Positions 22,887 through 36,756 of a stretch of DNA of 64,000 nucleotides are shown piece by piece. The notes beneath the pieces were generated by a model, which searched no databases, was not told the DNA's origin, and saw only the letters and a list, made by a program, of their open reading frames with translations. The position numbers and the translations under genes were made by a program. The DNA is from Candidatus Bathyarchaeota archaeon (GTDB lineage: Archaea > Thermoproteota > Bathyarchaeia > 40CM-2-53-6): NCBI GenBank assembly GCA_005888755.1, contig VBBQ01000033.1:1-64000 (forward strand), given 5' to 3'. Each line of letters begins with the position of its first letter. Positions within the stretch are counted from its first letter, which is position 1.

Positions 22887-23450
22887 TTGGAGAAAGAACC
22901 ATCTATCGTAGAGATTGTAGACACAGAACTCGAAAACTCGCCTTCACGACTAACACTTCTCCGCGAATTCCCAGAAACCCGGATCGGCGATAGGACCCTA
23001 GGCCCATACCGAATGGGACAAGAGATCGAACTTTCACTGTGGATCGCCCAACACTTGGTCCAGATGGGGTACGCCCGCTTCAAAGAAGAAGAACAACTCA
23101 CTCTAAACACGCTCTCAACTACCCATTATAGGCAGACTCTGCCCGCCTCAAACCAGATCCCGGAGCTGCCTCGGTCATTCTATTTTCAACTCCGCAGGCT
23201 CATCAAAGACCTCAAGAACCTTGAAGTGAAAGACCGGACGAAGGCCCGGGAGCTAGACAAAGCACTTGCTTTGGGATGGGATATTGTCAACTTACGAGTG
23301 AAAAAGATCGCATCTCTAGGGGCTTCTGGGGGTCAAACTACTGAGGTCACGTCCAAACTTACGCTGGAGGAGAAGGCTCTCTTCGAGAAGGTGCGTCAGA
23401 ACGTTGAGTCGTGGAAGAAAGACATTCTTGGCAGTGAGACTACAAATTGA
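22887..23450 (+). CDS. GINS-like replication protein
   Basis: 187aa helical protein starting 4 nt before the MCM stop-start junction; position and GINS-like N-terminus support the call. Confidence 0.7.
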   Translation: MEKEPSIVEIVDTELENSPSRLTLLREFPETRIGDRTLGPYRMGQEIELSLWIAQHLVQMGYARFKEEEQLTLNTLSTTHYRQTLPASNQIPELPRSFYFQLRRLIKDLKNLEVKDRTKARELDKALALGWDIVNLRVKKIASLGASGGQTTEVTSKLTLEEKALFEKVRQNVESWKKDILGSETTN

Positions 23451-26400
23451 CTCTACTGGCCCCAACGGAAACAGGTCTCCCAGAGAACGTATTCCAGGAC
23501 TTCTTCCGCGCGTACCTAGCCGACCCGGTAGGATCCAAGTATAGGAAACGCCTCGCGGAGGTGGCAGTCAACAATGGTCGATCGCTCGTAATCGATTTCG
23601 ACGACCTAATCGCGTTCGACCCAGTGCTTGCACGAAATGTCGTGCAGCACCCGGATGACTTCTTTGTTCACGCTAGCTCCGCGGCGACCTCTCAGATGCG
23701 TGTTGAGGATCCTGAGTACGCTGAACAGGTGGGTCGTATCATTGTGCGATTTCGTCGTCTTCCGGAGAAGAGGGCTCTCAGAAAGATTGGCGCTGAGGAC
23801 CTGATGAAACTCGCACTAGTCGAGGGGATAGTTGTCCGAACCAGCCAAGTACGGCCTATGATCGTCAAGGCTGTTTTCCGCTGTCGGAAGTGTGGCGAAC
23901 TCTCTCGTCAGGATCAGGCAGGAGATTTGTTACGCGGGCCTGGCCCCATTTGTGCAAGTTGTAAGCAACAGAGCGGCTGGGACTTGATCGAAGACCAGTG
24001 TGTGTTCAAGAATACTCAGGAAGCTCGCGTCCAAGAACGCCCCGAGGATCTTCCTCCCGGAATGCTGCCTAGATATCTGGATGTCAGACTAGACGACGAC
24101 CTCGTCGACACTGCGCGTCCCGGCGACAGAGTGGCGTTGACTTCCGTGGTGAGAGCTGAGAAACAGTACGCTGGAGAGAAAGGAAAGCTCAGAACCTTCA
24201 ACCTGTATCTAGAGGCGAATTTTGTAGATGTTGTCGGGAAAGAGACTGAAATCGTTGAGATCACTCTTGAAGACGAGAAGAAGATCATCGAAGCCTCGAA
24301 ACACCCCTTCGTCCATCGAAACCTCATCATGAGTCTGGCCCCATCAATCTACGGCTACGATGAGATCAAAGAAGGAATACTCTATCTTCTATTCGCGGGA
24401 GTTGCAAAACGACTCCCTGATGGCGTCAACATTCGAGGTGACCTGAACTGCTTGATCGTGGGCGATCCCGGGTGTCTTATTGGAGACGAGCGAGTTGTTC
24501 TGGGTGATGGGACAGTCGCCAAGATTGAGGACCTCGGTGATCATCATCTTGAGAACCTGAATATTCCTGTCCTAACGGGCGGTGGGGGAGCGGAAAAAGA
24601 CATCGCGACTCGATTCCATATTTACCATAATCAGCCAACGATGGAGATTGTCACAGAATCCGGAAAGAGCATCAGAGGCACTTACAATCATCCTCTGCTT
24701 TCGGTCGAGATTGTCGAGCGAACGCAGATTCGACGCTGGAAGAGATTGGACGAGTTTAGGGTAGGGGACAGAGTCGCAGTTGTCACCGGATTCCCTTGCT
24801 ACATTACTGGGCTGGTCCACACTGGTTGGCATCCTCTACCTTACACGCTAGGTCCAAAGTTCCGCGGCCGCCTCCCGACGAAGGTGACTCCCGAACTTGG
24901 CTCATTCATGGGCTACGTCCTTGGAGACGGTTGGGTCGAGCGATACAGAGCTGGGTTTACGGTCGCCGATGGGGAGAAGGACGTCCTCAAGACGCTTTGC
25001 GCTATGTCAATCAGACTCTTTGGCATTACCCCCAAGGTTAGTTCCAGAAAAGGACCCAACCGCAATGTCCAGCTCTTTGAGGGGGTAATTCACAGCCAGG
25101 ACGTCGCGTACAATCTGGCCACCCTAAAAGAGAAGCGCATCCCAGATCTCATCCTGAAGTCGGGAGATAGTGTCGTCTCACCGTTCCTAAGATGGCTGTA
25201 CGAAGCAGACGGAACAGTCTTCTCAAGTAAGAGAGGATGCGGAGCCATCGGCCTCAAAGCGAAAAACATCGAGCTTTTGCGAGATGTCCAGATTCTTCTC
25301 TTACGATTCGGAATACACTCACGAATAATTTCAAATGCCCTTCTAATTAGAAGAGGTGAAAGCATTCTAAAATTTGCTGACAAGATTGGTTTCGCGTCGG
25401 TCAAGAAACAGACTCGTCTGGCTGACTTGAGAGCGCGAGCTGCGAGGCTGAAGCGGTTTGGAAGGCAACACAGTGAACGCATTGTAGCCGTGTATCATCG
25501 AGAGCCCGCCGATGTTTATGACATCGAAGTTCCCCAGAGCCACAAGTTCGTCGCGAACGGAATAGTCTCTCACAATACGGCCAAGAGCCAGTTGTTGCAG
25601 TACGTTTCAAGAATTGCCCCCAGAGGCCTCTATACCTCGGGAAGAGGGACAACCGCTGCAGGACTCACTGCAGCAGTCTTGCGCGAGAAAACGGGAGGAA
25701 TGGTGCTCGAAGCTGGTGCCTTAGTCCTTGCCGACAAAGGAGTCGCCTGCCTTCACCCGGATAGCGAGGTCTTTGTGGATGGGGTTCAGAGGAGAGTGGC
25801 TGATCTGTTCGACGAGGGACGTATTGAACGGGCGCTATCGGGCAGCAATCGGTTGGAATTGTCCCCTTTGCATCAGTCCGTTGCGAATCTCGATCTTGAC
25901 AGACTTGTTACGAGGCAGGCAACCGCGACTCTCGTCGCCCGCAGATGGTACAGTGGGCAGATTCTCCGGGTGCGCATGGAGTCTGGAATGGAACTTCGCC
26001 TGACGTCAGCTCATCCAGTTCTCGACGGGAAGACATTACAGTGGAAGCCGATAGGTGACTTCAGGCCGGGAGACAATATTGTCGCTCTCAAGAAGCTACC
26101 GTCCTCCCGGACTCGAGTCTTGCTTCTTGACATACTTCCAGACGACTGGATTGTCCAACCTCTCTCCAGCGAGAAAGTGGAACTTCGCCGTGTTCTAGAG
26201 GCAAAGCATACCTCCTTGCGAGCAATCAACAGCTACTACGGATTGAAAAGAGATGCGCTCAATGGCCGCGGGGCGCTAACGATTAGGCAATTCAAGGCAA
26301 TTCTGAAAGACACGGGAATGTACAACGCCTGGGCACAGCGACCGTTTGCTTTCGGAAGAAAGAAGCGCACAGAACGTCTAAAGATTGGCACACTGACAGC

Positions 26401-28201
26401 GGACCTTGCTTACATTCTGGGGTTTGCTTATGGAAAGGGATGCGTGCGATCTAGTGCCAAGCATTCGGCCTTGAGAATCACGCAATCATCAGTCCACGCC
26501 GATTATATCAGGCGACTTCAGAGGGCAATGCACCAAGTGTCACACCGCCCTTGGAATACGTATCTACTCCCCGCCAGGACGACAAAGTTTGCCAAGAGTT
26601 CTGAATGCCAAGTTCTTGTCCGACATTCTAACCTCGTCGTGCACTTGTTTGAATGGTTGACGCGTAACGGACTTCAAAACCTTCTTCGTCTCAATGATGC
26701 GGCACTCGCTGGATTCCTAGCTGGGGCTGTCGATGCTGACGGATGCTTCAGTATCAAGAAGAATCGGCAATACTCCATGGTTTCCTTTGATCTTCTTCTG
26801 TCTAACGATCTTGCATCAAACCGCCGCTTGCTCTGGGCCCTCCGGCGCTTCGACGTGTACGCACGCATCAAGAGTCTTCACGGCGTAATGAGCATACAGA
26901 TTACCTCCAGGCGCGATGTCAGGCGGTTGATGGACCGAATAAGTCTGTATTCAGGGAAAGCGAAAAACATTCCTCCTCAGCGAACCCGAATTTCAGCTCG
27001 ACACGAGGCAGTTCCCGCGTTGCCCCTTCGTGTAGCACTCTCGGGCCTGCGGCCGGTCCCAATCGAGCTACTCCGCTCCGGCGATTGGAGTACATTCCAT
27101 TCGTACCGCAACGGGAAGCGACAACCGTACAAGGCTCCTCTCCAGCGATTGATCCGCGGGCTTCACACCTGGTTGGACGCCTCCTCTCGAGAACGACTCC
27201 TCGCGCTTGCTGGGGACGATTATGCCCTCGATGCAATCCGAACGGTCAATTCGGAATTCTACACGGGCTACGTTTATGATCTTCGCGTTCCTCTAGGGGA
27301 ACACTTTGTCACTGAAGGCGTCCTCACTCACAACTGTATAGATGAACTGGACAAGATGAGGCCCGATGATAGAGTCGCGATCCATGAGGCTCTGGAACAG
27401 CAAACTGTCAGTGTTGCCAAAGGAGGAATTGTGGCCACTCTGAACGCTAGGGCGGCAGTTCTTGCGGCTGCGAACCCTTCCCTTGGAAGATATGAACCGC
27501 ATAGAAACATCAACGAAAACATCAACCTGCCCGTGACCATACTTTCGAGATTTGACTTGATATTTCTCGTTAAGGATCTACCGGACCCCGATAGCGATTC
27601 CGAAATGTCGTCTCACATTCTACAATTGCATAGGGCGAGACACGGTTCAGAAGAAGCGCCATTCCAACCGGACTTCCTACGGAAATACATCAGCTATGCG
27701 AAGAGGATAATCCCGGTGCTGACTCCGGACGCGGTCAAGGAGCTACAGGACTTTTATCTGAAAATGCGTGGGACAACAGGCCGAGAAGCAGCAGTAGCGA
27801 TTACCCCTCGTCAATTAGAGGCGTTGGTCAGACTATCCGAGGCAAGAGCTCGAGCATTCCTTCGCGATCAAGTGACAGTGGAGGATGCGAAAAGTGCTGT
27901 AAAAATCATGACCTACGCTTTGCTAGACGTAGGGGTGGACGTGAAAACAGGAAAGATCGATATCGATACGATAATGACAGGTAGGCCTGCGACGGTGCGG
28001 GACACGTTGGGTCGGGTAATCGACATCGTCCGGGAGCTTGAACGAGAAACCGGAGATGTAGATGAGAAAATCCTGATTGCCGCTATAGTGGACAAGAATA
28101 AGGTCACCGATGGAGAAGCTAGACGATTCGTCGGGCAGTTGATAAAAGAGGGAATGCTCTACTCCCCCAAGGAAGGAAGACTAAAGCGAACCTCAAGCTA
28201 G
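23447..28201 (+). CDS. mcm: MCM replicative helicase containing two inteins
   Basis: Exteins join as LNCLIVGDPG/TAKSQLLQYVSRIAPRG...LVLADKGVA/CIDELDKMRPDD...AANPSLGRYEP; single open frame of 1584aa. Confidence 0.97.
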   Translation: MTLLAPTETGLPENVFQDFFRAYLADPVGSKYRKRLAEVAVNNGRSLVIDFDDLIAFDPVLARNVVQHPDDFFVHASSAATSQMRVEDPEYAEQVGRIIVRFRRLPEKRALRKIGAEDLMKLALVEGIVVRTSQVRPMIVKAVFRCRKCGELSRQDQAGDLLRGPGPICASCKQQSGWDLIEDQCVFKNTQEARVQERPEDLPPGMLPRYLDVRLDDDLVDTARPGDRVALTSVVRAEKQYAGEKGKLRTFNLYLEANFVDVVGKETEIVEITLEDEKKIIEASKHPFVHRNLIMSLAPSIYGYDEIKEGILYLLFAGVAKRLPDGVNIRGDLNCLIVGDPGCLIGDERVVLGDGTVAKIEDLGDHHLENLNIPVLTGGGGAEKDIATRFHIYHNQPTMEIVTESGKSIRGTYNHPLLSVEIVERTQIRRWKRLDEFRVGDRVAVVTGFPCYITGLVHTGWHPLPYTLGPKFRGRLPTKVTPELGSFMGYVLGDGWVERYRAGFTVADGEKDVLKTLCAMSIRLFGITPKVSSRKGPNRNVQLFEGVIHSQDVAYNLATLKEKRIPDLILKSGDSVVSPFLRWLYEADGTVFSSKRGCGAIGLKAKNIELLRDVQILLLRFGIHSRIISNALLIRRGESILKFADKIGFASVKKQTRLADLRARAARLKRFGRQHSERIVAVYHREPADVYDIEVPQSHKFVANGIVSHNTAKSQLLQYVSRIAPRGLYTSGRGTTAAGLTAAVLREKTGGMVLEAGALVLADKGVACLHPDSEVFVDGVQRRVADLFDEGRIERALSGSNRLELSPLHQSVANLDLDRLVTRQATATLVARRWYSGQILRVRMESGMELRLTSAHPVLDGKTLQWKPIGDFRPGDNIVALKKLPSSRTRVLLLDILPDDWIVQPLSSEKVELRRVLEAKHTSLRAINSYYGLKRDALNGRGALTIRQFKAILKDTGMYNAWAQRPFAFGRKKRTERLKIGTLTADLAYILGFAYGKGCVRSSAKHSALRITQSSVHADYIRRLQRAMHQVSHRPWNTYLLPARTTKFAKSSECQVLVRHSNLVVHLFEWLTRNGLQNLLRLNDAALAGFLAGAVDADGCFSIKKNRQYSMVSFDLLLSNDLASNRRLLWALRRFDVYARIKSLHGVMSIQITSRRDVRRLMDRISLYSGKAKNIPPQRTRISARHEAVPALPLRVALSGLRPVPIELLRSGDWSTFHSYRNGKRQPYKAPLQRLIRGLHTWLDASSRERLLALAGDDYALDAIRTVNSEFYTGYVYDLRVPLGEHFVTEGVLTHNCIDELDKMRPDDRVAIHEALEQQTVSVAKGGIVATLNARAAVLAAANPSLGRYEPHRNINENINLPVTILSRFDLIFLVKDLPDPDSDSEMSSHILQLHRARHGSEEAPFQPDFLRKYISYAKRIIPVLTPDAVKELQDFYLKMRGTTGREAAVAITPRQLEALVRLSEARARAFLRDQVTVEDAKSAVKIMTYALLDVGVDVKTGKIDIDTIMTGRPATVRDTLGRVIDIVRELERETGDVDEKILIAAIVDKNKVTDGEARRFVGQLIKEGMLYSPKEGRLKRTSS
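24473..25576 (+). other. MCM intein 1 (368 aa), inserted in Walker A
   Basis: Begins CLIGDERVVLGDGT after GDPG, ends VVSHN-type block (ANGIVSHN) before TAKS. LAGLIDADG motifs GYVLGDG and LRWLYEADG. Confidence 0.95.
25748..27334 (+). other. MCM intein 2 (529 aa), inserted just before the Walker B core
   Basis: Begins CLHPDSEVFVDGVQR after ADKGVA, ends EGVLTHN before CIDELDKM. Confidence 0.95.
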
Positions 28202-28229: not shown

Positions 28230-31200
28230 GTGAAGATTAGCGAACTCTCTATCGACAAGCAAGTAATCGAGCTACTATCCAAAGAAGGCCTCGACGAGCT
28301 CTACCCGCCCCAGCAACACGCCATCGAGGCCGGGGTCTTGGACGGTAAGAACCTAGTTCTGGCGAGTCCAACGGCAAGTGGAAAGACTCTGGTAGCAGAA
28401 CTCTGTATTTTGCAACACGTCCTCGAACACCGAGGCAAAGCAATCTACCTTGCCCCACTACGTGCATTGGCTAGCGAGAAATTCAAGGAATTCCAAAGAT
28501 ACTCAGCAATCAAGAAACCCAACGGGGACCATGTCCGAGCTGGAATATCCACGGGTGACTATGACAGCTCAGACCCGTGGCTAGGAAGATACGACATCAT
28601 TCTTTGTACTAACGAGAAAGCCGACTCTCTCCTGAGGCACAAAGCGCCCTGGATGAGCGAACTAACCCTGGTCGTTGCAGACGAAGTTCATCTCCTGACA
28701 GAACAGGAAAGGGGTCCAACTCTCGAAGTGGTTCTGACTCGACTAACAGAGATCAACCCGAACATCCAGGTCTTGGCTCTCAGCGCAACGGTGAGGAATG
28801 CGGAAGAAGTGGGGTCCTGGCTGAAAGCCGGATCGGTGACGACCGACTGGCGACCCGTCCCGCTAAGAGAAGGAATCTATCACGATAATCAAGTACAGTT
28901 CCGAGATGGCGCAAGCCGAGTGATTCTTAGCGGAACCAAAACGCCGAGCCTCGACATCGCGCTCGACGTTTTGAGCACTGGCGGACAAGCACTGATTTTC
29001 ACTGAGACCCGGCGGTCCGCGGTCGAGATGGGGCGGAAGGCTTCGGTGGCGGTGAAAAGTCGCTTGTCGAAGCCCGAAGAGAGAGCGTTGACCAGTATTG
29101 CTGAGCGAATACTCTCAACGGGCGAGAAGACCCGGCTAAGTGAAGCCCTGGCAATGCAGGTCGCAGGAGGAGCCGGCTTCCACCATGCAGGATTAGCAGG
29201 AATTCATCGTGGAATAGTGGAAGACGCCTTTCGAGATGGCAGAATCAAAGTCTTGGCAGCGACCCCAACACTTTGCCTCCCTGCGGGAGAAGAGATTTTT
29301 GGAAATCCAGCCCCTATTGCAATAGAGAAGCTCTCCAGCCACGACAAAGTCTTGACTCATGGGAACGTATTTGAAAACGTCATCGCGCCAACCTCCCGAT
29401 GGTATGACGGGCCTCTCGTAAAGATCACACCCTGGTTCCAACTCCCCATGAGGATGACGCCAGAACACAATGTGCTCCGAGTGATTCGCGAAAGGCATTC
29501 GTTGCGCACTCGGGGCACGAATCGCCACTGGTGGACTTATTCTCAGCCCGAGTGGGTCGCGGCGAAGAACCTGAGTACGGGCGATCTAGTGTTGTTCCCG
29601 AGAATCAAGGAAGAACACGATCTTCAATGTATTGATCTGTCTGAGCAAGGCTCCTTATCAAACCAGTATGGCGTCGTAGGAAAACACTGGTCAAGACTGA
29701 AAATTGCCTCCTTAGAATTAACCCCTCAGACACTCGAAGTGTTGGGCCTGTTTCTCGCTAAAGGCTACACTGGAAGACAAGGGCAGGTTATGTTTGCTCT
29801 GAACACAAAAGAGACCGAGCTGACGTCAATAGTCACGAACTGGCTTATAACAATCGGGTTGAGGCCCAGCGTTATCTATAGCGAAAGACACAGACGTGTC
29901 ATCAGGGCTTGTTCTAAACAACTGGCAGAGACACTTCGAGCACTGTGTGGACGAGGAGCGGTTGAGAAGAGGATTCCGCATCAGCTTGTTTACCTCCCGA
30001 ACAACCAACTTGCCCACGTAGTTAGAGGAATGTGGCGCGGAGACGGTGATGTCACCGAATCCGGAGCAAGAACAGCAAGATACTCAACTGTGTCGAGAGG
30101 TCTGGCCAAACAACTGTTTGCGGTGCTCGTTAAACTCGGGTACATGGCAACGATCAAGATCAGCAAGAGGGCTGGGATTACATCGAAACAAGGTCTGGCA
30201 ATTACTCACAAACGCGATCTCTACACGGTTTCGGTTTCCGGGAAACAACTCACCCGGTTCATATTAGACATCTTGAGAGTCAAATCTAACAAGTTTGTTG
30301 GGAATCGTGAATTCAATAGAGGATATCTTGATTCCGATTATTACTATATGCCGATTAGAACCGTCGAGCAGGAACCCTACCAAGGCACAGTTCACAATCT
30401 GGAGGTCAACGGCCACAACAGCTACGTTGGCTCGTTCGTAGTCCACAATTCCGCAGGCGTGAACCTACCAGCTAGGGCTGTAGTCATCAGCAGCTACGAA
30501 CGCTACGAAGCAGGCTATGGCAGATACCCGATAAGTGTGCTAGAGTACAAGCAATTCTGCCTGCCTCCGGATGTGCCGGTGATCCTGGAAGACGGGTCTC
30601 CAATTCCAATTGGCCGGATTGTGAAGGACCGAATTGGCGAACGCGTGTTGTCCATGTCTAATCCTCACGGGGTCGTAAGCAAGCCCATTGCTGGATACTT
30701 CGAACGAGAAGCGGCTGAACTCGTTGAAGTCAGCACTGCTATCGGAAGAACATTAAGTGCAACACCGGAACACCCAGTCTTATCGAGACGGGAGGACGGT
30801 TCTCCTGCATGGATCCCGATCAAATCTATCAGGATAGGTGACCACTTAGCATACGCCCGAGAGGTTCCAACCTCGGAGTCTCACGTCTACTGGGTAGATT
30901 TGATCGGGATCCATGCAGGAGAACCGTCCCAAGAAATCTATTCCCCTAAAATACAAAGATGTCGCCCAACATCTCGGGGTTAGCCTCAGGACCTTCAAGG
31001 GTTACGTATCTGCCAGACGAAACCCGCCGTTGTCCAGAGTTCTGTCCCTGGGCAGGCTTTTAGGTCTCGGCAAGACGGAACTTGCATCGCAAATTCGCCT
31101 CGTTAAGTCCAAGTGGGGGAAACCGATACGGATCCCTGAAACTATCAATGAAGATTTCATGTGGCTAGTTGGGATCATAGCATCGGACGGGCACATCAAG

Positions 31201-33054
31201 AAATCCCAAACCATCAGAGGGACCTACTACCACATTCGTGTTTTCAACAAGAACCGCGAAATTATCGAAAAAGCTGAATCTGTCCTCCAAAGACTAGGCT
31301 GCCATCCGCAAGTCACTAGCAGACTGGATCAGCAACTCATTGTGGAAGTTGGCTCGAACGTATTGGGTCCAATAATCTCTCAGTTCGGGATCCCATTCAG
31401 GAGGAAATCCTTGGATGTTTTCGTCCCTGACTTTCTGTTACGATTCCCAAAACCCTTGATAGGCGCTTTCCTTGCAGGTGTCTTCGATGGCGATGGATCC
31501 TACTCGGAAACCAAGTATCCAAGAGGAATAAACACTAAGGTTAGAGCCATCGTTATCGCGACTGGAAGCCGTAGGTTCGCTTGGGGCCTTCACGATCTCT
31601 TGCTCAGACTCGGAATCCTGAGCACAGTCGTCAAGAGTGATCACGTTCAAGAGGTTATGCTGAATAATAGACTGGCTATTTTCCCGAACCCAGTCTACAG
31701 GGTCACGTTTCGAAAGATAGCCGATATTCGAAGGTTTAGGGACTTGGCGCCATCCGTAAAGAAGATCCCCAAGATTGATTATAGTCAGTACCACAATTCG
31801 CACGCGTATCGAACAGAAGAAAATAGACAACCCTATTCCTGGGTGAAAGTGAAAGGCACGGTCAGGAAGAAACTTCGCAGCCCAATAAAGGTCTACAATC
31901 TTTCCGTGAGCGAAACTGAAACGTACTTGGCGTCAAACTTCATCGTGCACAATTGCGGGCGAGCTGGAAGGCCGAAGTACGACAAGTTCGGCGAAGCTTT
32001 GCTAATCGCGCGTAATCCTGACGAGGCGGAGTGGTTGATGGAGAATTACGTTCTTGCCCAGCCTGAGAAACTCTGGTCCAAACTTGCGGCGGAGCGAGTT
32101 CTTCGCCCACATGTACTATCTACTGTTGCTGCCGGGTATGCTCATTCAGAGGAGGGGTTGTATAACTTCTTCGGAAAAACATTCTACGCCCATCAATATG
32201 GGCCTCGGCTGATCAGGATCAAGATCGGCGATATCTTGCAATTTCTTGTCAAACAGAAGATGGTTACGATGGAGGGAAAGGACCTGGAGGCGTCCAAGTT
32301 CGGCAAACGGGTTTCGGAGTTGTACATCGACCCGATGTCTGCTGTCATTCTCAGGGATGGACTCAACAGTCGGGCGAAGAGTATGACCGACTTGAGTTTG
32401 TTGCATCTCATATGCAAGACTCCCGACCTTGCTCCCCGTCCCCGTCCAAGGGGAAGCGAAATAGACAAACTGATTGTGACAGCTGAGTTGCACCGAAACG
32501 AATTCGTCGGCGATGTTCCGGACCAATTTGTTGATCCACTGGAATACGAAAATTTCTTGAGCGAGCTCAAGGCCTCTCAAGTACTACTTGACTGGATAGA
32601 CGAACAGACCGAAGACCAAATCTTGGAAACCAGGAAGGTCGAACCAGGCGATCTGCTCAGGCTTGTACAGGGGTCCGAGTGGTTGATTCTTGCTACTCAG
32701 GAACTGGGACGTCTGTTTGGGCACAAGGACCTTCTGGCGCCCTTGGAGATGCTCAAGGTGAGGCTCGCAAAGGGCGTTCGTCCGGAACTGGTTAAACTGA
32801 CATCGCTTGAAGGCGTCGGACGAGTCAGAGCCCGCATGCTCTTCGACGCTGGATTGAAAACGATCGAAGATATCAAGGAAAGGAGCCTCGAACAATTGAC
32901 GAGCATTCGGACCATTGGTCCATCGCTTGCGAAGAAGATCAAGGTACAAGCCGGGGGACTCATCAAGGCAGATGAATGGGAAAAGGCGAAGAATGCAAAA
33001 CCGTCGGAAGTAGAACAGCAAGCAATCCTAACCGAATACGAAGACTCCGAATAG
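28230..33054 (+). CDS. hel308: Hel308-type Superfamily 2 DNA helicase with two inteins; reading frame changes inside intein 2
   Basis: LASPTASGKTLVAEL (Walker A), VADEVHLL; exteins join as AATPTL/SAGVNLPARAVVISSYERY...VLEYKQF/CGRAGRPKYDKFGEALLIARN; C-terminal HhH domain. ORFs 28230..30983 and 30913..33054 are its two parts. Confidence 0.93.
29274..30449 (+). other. Hel308 intein 1 (392 aa)
   Basis: CLPAGEEIFGNPAPIAIEKL...NGHNSYVGSFVVHN followed by extein S. Confidence 0.94.
30558..31953 (+). other. Hel308 intein 2, frame-disrupted (1396 nt, not a multiple of 3)
   Basis: CLPPDVPVILEDGSPIPIGRI...WIPIKSIRIGDHLAYA in frame 1; HTH-like segment, LVGIIASDGHI, GAFLAGVFDGDG and SNFIVHN in the other frame; next extein residue C of CGRAGRP. 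Confidence 0.9.
30794..30929. repeat. Perfect 35-bp inverted repeat (30794-30828 and 30895-30929) with 66-bp spacer
   Basis: ggacggttctcctgcatggatcccgatcaaatcta versus tagatttgatcgggatccatgcaggagaaccgtcc. Confidence 0.97.
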
Positions 33055-35522: not shown

Positions 35523-36756
35523 CTAATATCGACGTCTGTGTCGTTGGAATCTCGGCGGAGGACGACGAGCGGGACGCCTTCCACGACCTCGCTGGTGTCT
35601 CTCTCCGCCTCTCCTCGGACCGTAGGGACGAGGTGGGAGGAACAGTGTCGGGTATGATCTTCGGGTGGGAGAAGTGAGTCTGATCATCTCTTGAATGTTT
35701 GAGGAAGTTGTTCGTCTTATTCTCTCAAAGATGGAATCATCGCTTCGGCTTACGAGGGAGACCGCGATTCCGGCGCTTCCAGCTCGTGCGGTTCTGCCGA
35801 TTCTGTGGAAGTATGTGAGGGGTTCTTCCGGTAAGTCGAAATTGATCACGTGGCTTACGTTCGTAATGTCGAGGCCTCTTGCCGCCACGTCCGTAGCGAC
35901 CAGGACGGCGATCTTTCCGTCGCGAAAAGCCTGCATTGCTCTATCCCTTTGACCCTGGGAAAGATCTCCGTGAATCGCTAACGCATTGTAGCCCTCGACT
36001 CTCAGGGCTTGGGCAAGCCGACCGGCTCTGATCTTGGTCGAGCAGAATATGAGTCCTCTGGTTATCTTCTCGGCTTCTAAAAGGGAGCAGAGAGCTGGGA
36101 ATTTTTCATTCTCTTCAGCCCACGCATATTTTTGGGAGACGGATTCAACAGCAATCTCGTCGCTATCGACGAATATTCTCAGTGGATTCTTCATGTAGTG
36201 ATGGGCGAGTCTGATAATCTCGTCAGGCATTGTCGCTGAGAACAGGGTTGTTTGACGGGGCCCCGGGACTCTTTCGAGTATCTGTCTCACGTCATCGATG
36301 AACCCCATGTCCAACATTCTGTCCGCTTCGTCTAGCACCACAAATCGGACCCTGTCGAGGTCGACTGTTCTTCTCTCTAGATGGTCAAGAAGTCTGCCCG
36401 GAGTGGCGACGATAACTTTCGTGGTCGGCCTTTCTAGTTTGTTCAGCTGAACTCCTATGCTCTGACCACCGTAGACTGGGACCGTTCTTATTGGCATGTG
36501 GCGAGCGAGGCGCGCGAGTTGGGACTAGGACGAGAGCTTGCAGCCCACGAGCATGATTATCAATCCTCTGAAGTATCGGGAGGGCATACGCAAGGGTCTT
36601 TCCGGACCCAGTGTGAGCCTGTCCAATGATGTCTCTTCCTTGAAGAATAGGGGCGATAGCTTCGGCTTGAATTGGGAACATTTCTTCGAAGCCCATATCC
36701 TTGATTCCCTGAAGAAGCCGGGGTTGGAAACCTAGGGCTTCGAATTGTTGAGCCAA
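35523..36756 (-). pseudogene. DEAD-box RNA helicase interrupted by a frameshift in motif Ia (PTRELA)
   Basis: ORF 36385..36756 (AHTGSGKTLAYALPIL...LVLVPTR) continues in another frame as ORF 35523..36497 (VIVATPGRLLDHL, VLDEADRML, HRIGRTAR). Confidence 0.85.

What the first reader, a model, noticed from the sequence alone, without database searches (positions are those of the whole stretch)
30794..30929. Perfect 35-bp inverted repeat exactly at the frame break of the second Hel308 intein
30794-30828 (ggacggttctcctgcatggatcccgatcaaatcta) is repeated perfectly in inverse at 30895-30929, 66 bp away. The left arm encodes a normal-looking Hint segment (DGSPAWIPIKSI). The right arm is where the reading frame changes: frame 28230..30983 holds the intein N-terminus and frame 30913..33054 holds the endonuclease and C-terminus. 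Intein length is 1396 nt, not a multiple of 3. Simple explanations are a template-switch mutation that copied the left arm in reverse, an assembly fold-back artifact, or a DNA/RNA hairpin element. If real, the intein cannot splice without frame correction, and Hel308 is essential or near-essential in some archaea.
Basis: partly seen in the sequence, partly recalled or inferred. Interest (0 to 1): 0.72.

Follow-up and report, generated by a model that had tools for sequence, protein, structure and literature searches.

The report
Likely assembly fold-back in Hel308 intein
A 35-base stretch inside a DNA-helicase gene of a soil archaeon is a reversed copy of its own neighbour that overwrote about 55 normal bases; it is most likely an error of sequencing and assembly, less likely a fresh copying mutation, and there is no sign that it has a function.

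Summary
A perfect 35-nt inverted repeat (30794-30828 / 30895-30929, 66 nt apart) sits at the frame break of the second Hel308 intein of a soil Bathyarchaeota MAG. Same-genus relatives carry the intein in one open frame. They show that the left arm is native coding sequence. The right arm is an inverted copy of it that replaced a segment of about 55 nt (VDFLPQKITYVVGPIGFFN), net -20 nt, hence the frameshift. Relatives have no inverted repeat there. A 4-7 nt complementarity (TAGATTT) lies at the inner junction and about 1 nt at the outer one. Two readings fit: a fold-back (snap-back) library fragment built into a local misassembly, or a genuine short-range template-switch mutation. I favour the artefact, about 60:34. 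The same window holds a second frame-breaking lesion (DEAD-box helicase, -32 nt), next to a 135-nt exact patch of another species ending at the junction. The scaffolds contain short N gaps. Sister MAGs show similar lesions, one deleting a Walker A motif. The Hel308 exteins were under purifying selection. Against it: no other fold-back was found in 1.08 Mb or at 79 contig or gap ends. Nothing supports recoding, a hairpin element or a split intein. Reads would decide.

The parts
28230..33054 (+). Hel308 helicase gene with two inteins, reading frame broken in intein 2
   Evidence: frames; two best matches to NF040935 at 28230-29276 and 31954-32952
29274..30449 (+). intein 1 (1176 nt, in frame)
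   Evidence: boundaries from motifs; 97% identical to G013 protein; Pfam LAGLIDADG_3
30558..31953 (+). intein 2 (1396 nt; homologue G003 is 1416 nt)
30794..30828 (+). left arm; native Hint coding sequence (DGSPAWIPIKSI)
   Evidence: conserved in G003, G017, G001, G006
30829..30894 (+). 66-nt spacer, native coding sequence
   Evidence: collinear with relatives
30895..30929 (+). right arm; inverted copy of the left arm that replaced about 55 nt of native sequence
   Evidence: relatives have no inverted similarity here
30895..30901 (+). TAGATTT, complementarity at the inner junction (4-7 nt would have pre-existed, judging from relatives' GTAGACCT, TTAGACTT, TTAGATTT)
30930..30938 (+). outer junction, where native sequence resumes (C AAGAAATC)
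   Evidence: matches AAGAAATCT of G006
36379..36514 (-). comparison lesion: DEAD-box helicase, 32 nt missing at 36514; 36379-36513 is a 135-nt exact match to species G011 ending at the junction

Best explanation
It is most likely an artefact of library preparation plus local assembly. Proposed steps: (1) a single-stranded end ...GGGTAGATTT in the library folded back on AAATCTA about 66 nt upstream and was filled in to the fragment's own end, giving a self-complementary fragment of 136 nt that runs exactly from 30794 to 30929; (2) the assembler used it as the last piece of a contig end in a poorly covered spot; (3) that end was joined to the next contig at 30930, dropping the native segment. 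In the organism the intein would then be intact, about 1416 nt, and Hel308 whole. Shown: the replacement of native sequence, its direction, the net -20 nt, and the presence of other local errors in this assembly. Inferred: the fold-back fragment and the join.
For: The same 64-kb window holds a second frame-breaking lesion in a housekeeping gene (DEAD-box helicase, -32 nt, intact in seven relatives). There a 135-nt exact match to another species ends precisely at the junction inside sequence that is otherwise about 80-96% alike, which looks like a read-length foreign patch. The MAG is scaffolded with short N gaps of 1-89 nt, one of which makes a third frame break. Sister MAGs carry similar frame-breaking deletions, including one that removes the P-loop GPAGVGKTT of an ATPase. 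Curators report that such local assembly errors are frequent, with IDBA-UD suspected above all, and counted 13 in one 1.13-Mb genome (PMC7111523). Fold-back library chimeras are described with pairing regions of about 6 nt and spacings mostly of 50-200 nt (PMC8458033); here they are 4-7 nt and 66 nt. Both outer ends of the repeat fall on one genomic position, and the outer junction has about 1 nt of homology, as expected of a simple join. The gene otherwise looks intact and under purifying selection: against G013 and G017 only 4 synonymous and 1 non-synonymous codon changes are unique to the window in the C-extein. The arms are 35/35 identical.
Against: No fold-back longer than background was seen at 79 contig or gap ends (longest 9 nt), and no other long perfect inverted repeat in about 1 Mb of this genome or 0.66 Mb of relatives, so fold-backs are not a habit of this assembly. 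The cited fold-back statistics come from FFPE libraries, not soil. No break of donor similarity is seen at the Hel308 site. The assembler, coverage and reads of this MAG are unknown to me.
Confidence: 0.6

Rival explanations
1. A genuine, recent short-range template-switch (quasipalindrome or snap-back) mutation in the sampled strain. The growing strand ending ...GTAGATTT annealed to AAATCTA upstream, copied 28 further nt back to 30794, then returned to the template about 48 nt ahead, destroying the Hel308 frame.
For: The layout is the 3-2-1-4 order of the four-point model, which yields a single inverted repeat (PMC7954356). Complementarity of 4-7 nt lies at the entry point, as in quasipalindrome mutagenesis. 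Both flanks are collinear with relatives. Fold-backs are otherwise absent from the assembly. Hel308 is dispensable in several archaea.
Against: It needs two switches and about 48 nt of deletion, leaves a single-copy repair gene broken in a consensus genome whose C-extein is otherwise conserved, and comes from a window with a demonstrated local assembly error.
Confidence: 0.34
2. A functional arrangement: the hairpin (predicted RNA fold -88 kcal/mol) or the frame overlap allows translational bypass or +1 frameshifting, or the two overlapping ORFs make a naturally split intein that splices in trans.
For: The hairpin is very stable (z = -10). Both splicing halves keep their motifs: Cys1, TPEH, HN followed by Cys. 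An ATG at 30913, inside the copied arm, could start the second ORF.
Against: No relative has the repeat or a split frame. There is no Rfam match. Bypass of the whole hairpin would delete conserved Hint sequence. The simplest reading needs only one accident.
Confidence: 0.04

Closest known systems
Fold-back (snap-back) artefact chimeric fragments of sequencing libraries (PMC8458033) combined with local assembly errors (PMC7111523)
   Same: inverted copy of nearby sequence; short complementarity at the inner junction; spacing of tens of nt; both outer ends on one genomic position; local errors shown elsewhere in the same window
   Different: published fold-back statistics are from FFPE samples; no other fold-back seen in this assembly; reads not available
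Short-range template-switch / quasipalindrome mutations (four-point model, PMC7954356; E. coli, PMC7202029)
   Same: single inverted repeat, 3-2-1-4 order, entry microhomology, flanks collinear with relatives
   Different: larger than the usual quasipalindrome correction (about 28 nt newly copied, about 48 nt lost), inactivates the gene, read support unknown
Hel308 inteins of the same soil Bathyarchaeota genus (G003, G017, G001, G006)
   Same: same insertion site before CGRAGRP, same Hint, HTH and LAGLIDADG layout
   Different: relatives have one open frame and no inverted repeat

Membership tests
Short-range template-switch mutation | derived segment is an inverted copy of a nearby native segment | tested here: met
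Short-range template-switch mutation | sequence on both sides remains collinear with relatives | tested here: met
Short-range template-switch mutation | microhomology at the switch points | tested here: inconclusive
   4-7 nt at the inner junction, about 1 nt at the outer; exact ancestor unknown
Short-range template-switch mutation | allele present in DNA of the organism (read support) | not testable with these tools
   no reads available
Library fold-back chimera in a local misassembly | inner junction with short complementarity, pair distance of tens to about 200 nt | tested here: met
   TAGATTT, 66 nt; compared with PMC8458033
Library fold-back chimera in a local misassembly | assembly has other local errors or gaps nearby | tested here: met
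Library fold-back chimera in a local misassembly | fold-back tails at other contig or gap ends (supporting, not obligatory for a single event) | tested here: not met
   79 ends, longest 9 nt, as background
Library fold-back chimera in a local misassembly | no read crosses both junctions | not testable with these tools
   no reads available
Intein (Hint with LAGLIDADG endonuclease) | N-terminal Cys, block B TxxH, C-terminal HN followed by Cys, LAGLIDADG domain | tested here: met
   but on two frames
Intein (Hint with LAGLIDADG endonuclease) | one continuous reading frame with the exteins | tested here: not met
Natural split intein | two separately translated genes conserved as such | tested here: not met
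   no relative has the split
Natural split intein | trans-splicing of the two products | not testable with these tools
   needs expression experiment

The most novel reading that the evidence does not exclude
The allele is real and a one-step template switch has just split a Hel308 intein into two overlapping genes; the second starts at an ATG (30913) supplied by the inverted copy, and the two halves splice in trans, so that this would be a newborn split intein.
Probability: 0.02. Interest if true: 0.7.

Novelty: not a real feature. Interest (0 to 1): 0.12.

Why it matters
If it is an artefact, it is a clean example of how one fold-back fragment can fake a broken gene in a metagenome-assembled genome, and a warning against calling Hel308 lost, recoded or split here. 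If the mutation is real, it is a fully readable template-switch event in an uncultured archaeon that disables a fork-repair helicase.

Tried and rejected
Programmed frameshift or bypass: the homologues need none and no conserved signal exists, and skipping the hairpin, although 136 nt would restore the frame, would delete conserved Hint residues. RNA element: no Rfam match. Repeat as ancestral: relatives' segments differ from an inverted copy at 18-23 of 35 positions (G001 was mis-anchored in that script and is judged). Second Hel308 copy: none. Intein homologues in viral contigs or in the named genome collection: none found. AlphaFold model of the G003 intein had low confidence (pLDDT 49, pTM 0.44), so I did not use it to place the break in the fold.

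Full report
What was checked. The inverted repeat is exactly as described: arms 30794-30828 and 30895-30929, 35 of 35 complementary, 66 nt apart, and unique in the 2.01-Mb genome. The frame change is also as described. Intein 2 runs from 30558 to 31953, 1396 nt, and intein 1 from 29274 to 30449, 1176 nt, in frame. The organism is a soil Bathyarchaeota; the nearest named records are MAGs BA_21 and BA_23. This MAG has one Hel308.

What normally occupies the right arm. Same-genus genomes carry the same intein at the same site in one open frame: G003 (L004/L041), G017 (L005/L040), G001 (L006/L050) and, in part, G006 (L007/L042). Aligned DNA shows that the left arm is ordinary, conserved coding sequence. 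At the right arm the relatives have about 55 nt encoding VDFLPQKITYVVGPIGFFN or a close variant, and none has an inverted repeat there. The window has 35 nt instead, net -20 nt, equal to the length difference 1416 - 1396. So an inverted copy of the left arm replaced native sequence; that much is shown. At the inner junction the native codons (GTA GAT/GAC TT.) already resemble TAGATTT, the reverse complement of the left arm's end; at the outer junction homology is about one base.

Is the gene otherwise healthy? Yes. The C-extein is 97.3% identical in DNA to G013 and 95.4% to G006; against G013 and the outgroup G017, 4 synonymous and 1 non-synonymous codon changes are unique to the window (against G013 and G006: 6 and 5); in the N-extein against G006 and G017 the numbers are 25 and 1. 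Downstream of the break 2.1 kb stay open. The lesion is therefore very young, or not in the organism at all. G013 lacks intein 2 while sharing intein 1 and the exteins at 97%, so intein 2 comes and goes in this genus.

Testing for artefact. I asked whether other conserved genes of this MAG are broken. In 140 kb of conserved coding sequence three frame breaks appeared: the Hel308 site, a DEAD-box helicase in the same window (-32 nt at 36514, intact in seven relatives), and a gene at L089:11909 where the assembly has a short run of N. A looser screen also showed a 14-nt deletion at L198:11586. At the DEAD-box site 36379-36513 is identical over 135 nt to another species, G011, while neighbouring stretches are about 80-96% alike, and the identical patch ends exactly at the deletion junction. 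A read-length foreign patch next to a frame-breaking join is the mark of a local assembly error; recombination is conceivable but would not explain the deletion. The scaffolds contain short N gaps. Sister MAGs have similar lesions, one of which deletes the P-loop of an ATPase. Published curation experience says such errors are frequent and may be most common with IDBA-UD (PMC7111523); I do not know which assembler made this MAG.

How the artefact would arise. A single-stranded end folds back through a few complementary bases and is filled in; published chimeras of this kind have pairing regions near 6 nt and spacings mostly of 50-200 nt (PMC8458033). The product is a self-complementary fragment whose two ends lie on the same genomic position. 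The stretch 30794-30929 is exactly such a fragment of 136 nt. Placed at a contig end and joined to the next contig, it gives the observed sequence without a second template switch. This step is inferred.

What speaks for a real mutation. The arrangement is also a textbook single-inverted-repeat template switch (four-point order 3-2-1-4; PMC7954356), and quasipalindrome template switching is known in bacteria and yeast. Fold-backs are otherwise absent: no tail longer than background at 79 contig or gap ends and no other long perfect inverted repeat in about 1 Mb of the genome. Hel308 is dispensable in many archaea, so a broken allele is not impossible. I give this 0.34.

Function. The RNA hairpin is stable (-88 kcal/mol), but its arms are too recent and too isolated for a selected element; no Rfam family matches. 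The catalytic motifs of both splicing halves are intact on the two frames, so a newborn split intein is thinkable, but nothing supports it beyond geometry. I give it 0.02.

Verdict. Reads across 30894/30895 and 30929/30930 decide.

Noticed in passing
window 35523-36756 (minus), junction at 36514: DEAD-box helicase lacks 32 nt (motif Ia region, PTRELAVQVAGEFER) present in seven relatives; a 135-nt exact match to species G011 ends at the junction. Probable local assembly error.
   Followed up: yes
L042 (G006:C69), just after AAGAAATCT, equivalent to window about 30939-30989: The sister intein 2 in G006 has an in-frame 51-nt deletion removing the start of the HTH segment, within about 10 nt of the outer end of the right arm.
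   Followed up: partly
window 30558-31953 versus flanks: Intein 2 is only about 74-78% identical (protein) to that of G006 although exteins and intein 1 are 96-98% identical, and G013 lacks it: recent independent gain or replacement by homing.
   Followed up: partly
window 23438-28201: The MCM helicase gene next to Hel308 also carries two inteins, both in frame.
   Followed up: no
L159 about 1850 (G015:C16): An ATPase gene in sister MAG G015 lacks 35 nt covering its Walker A motif (YGPAGVGKTTVA), which relatives keep; probable assembly error.
   Followed up: partly
L198 about 11586 (G000:C25): A 14-nt frame-breaking deletion relative to G013 in a conserved gene.
   Followed up: partly
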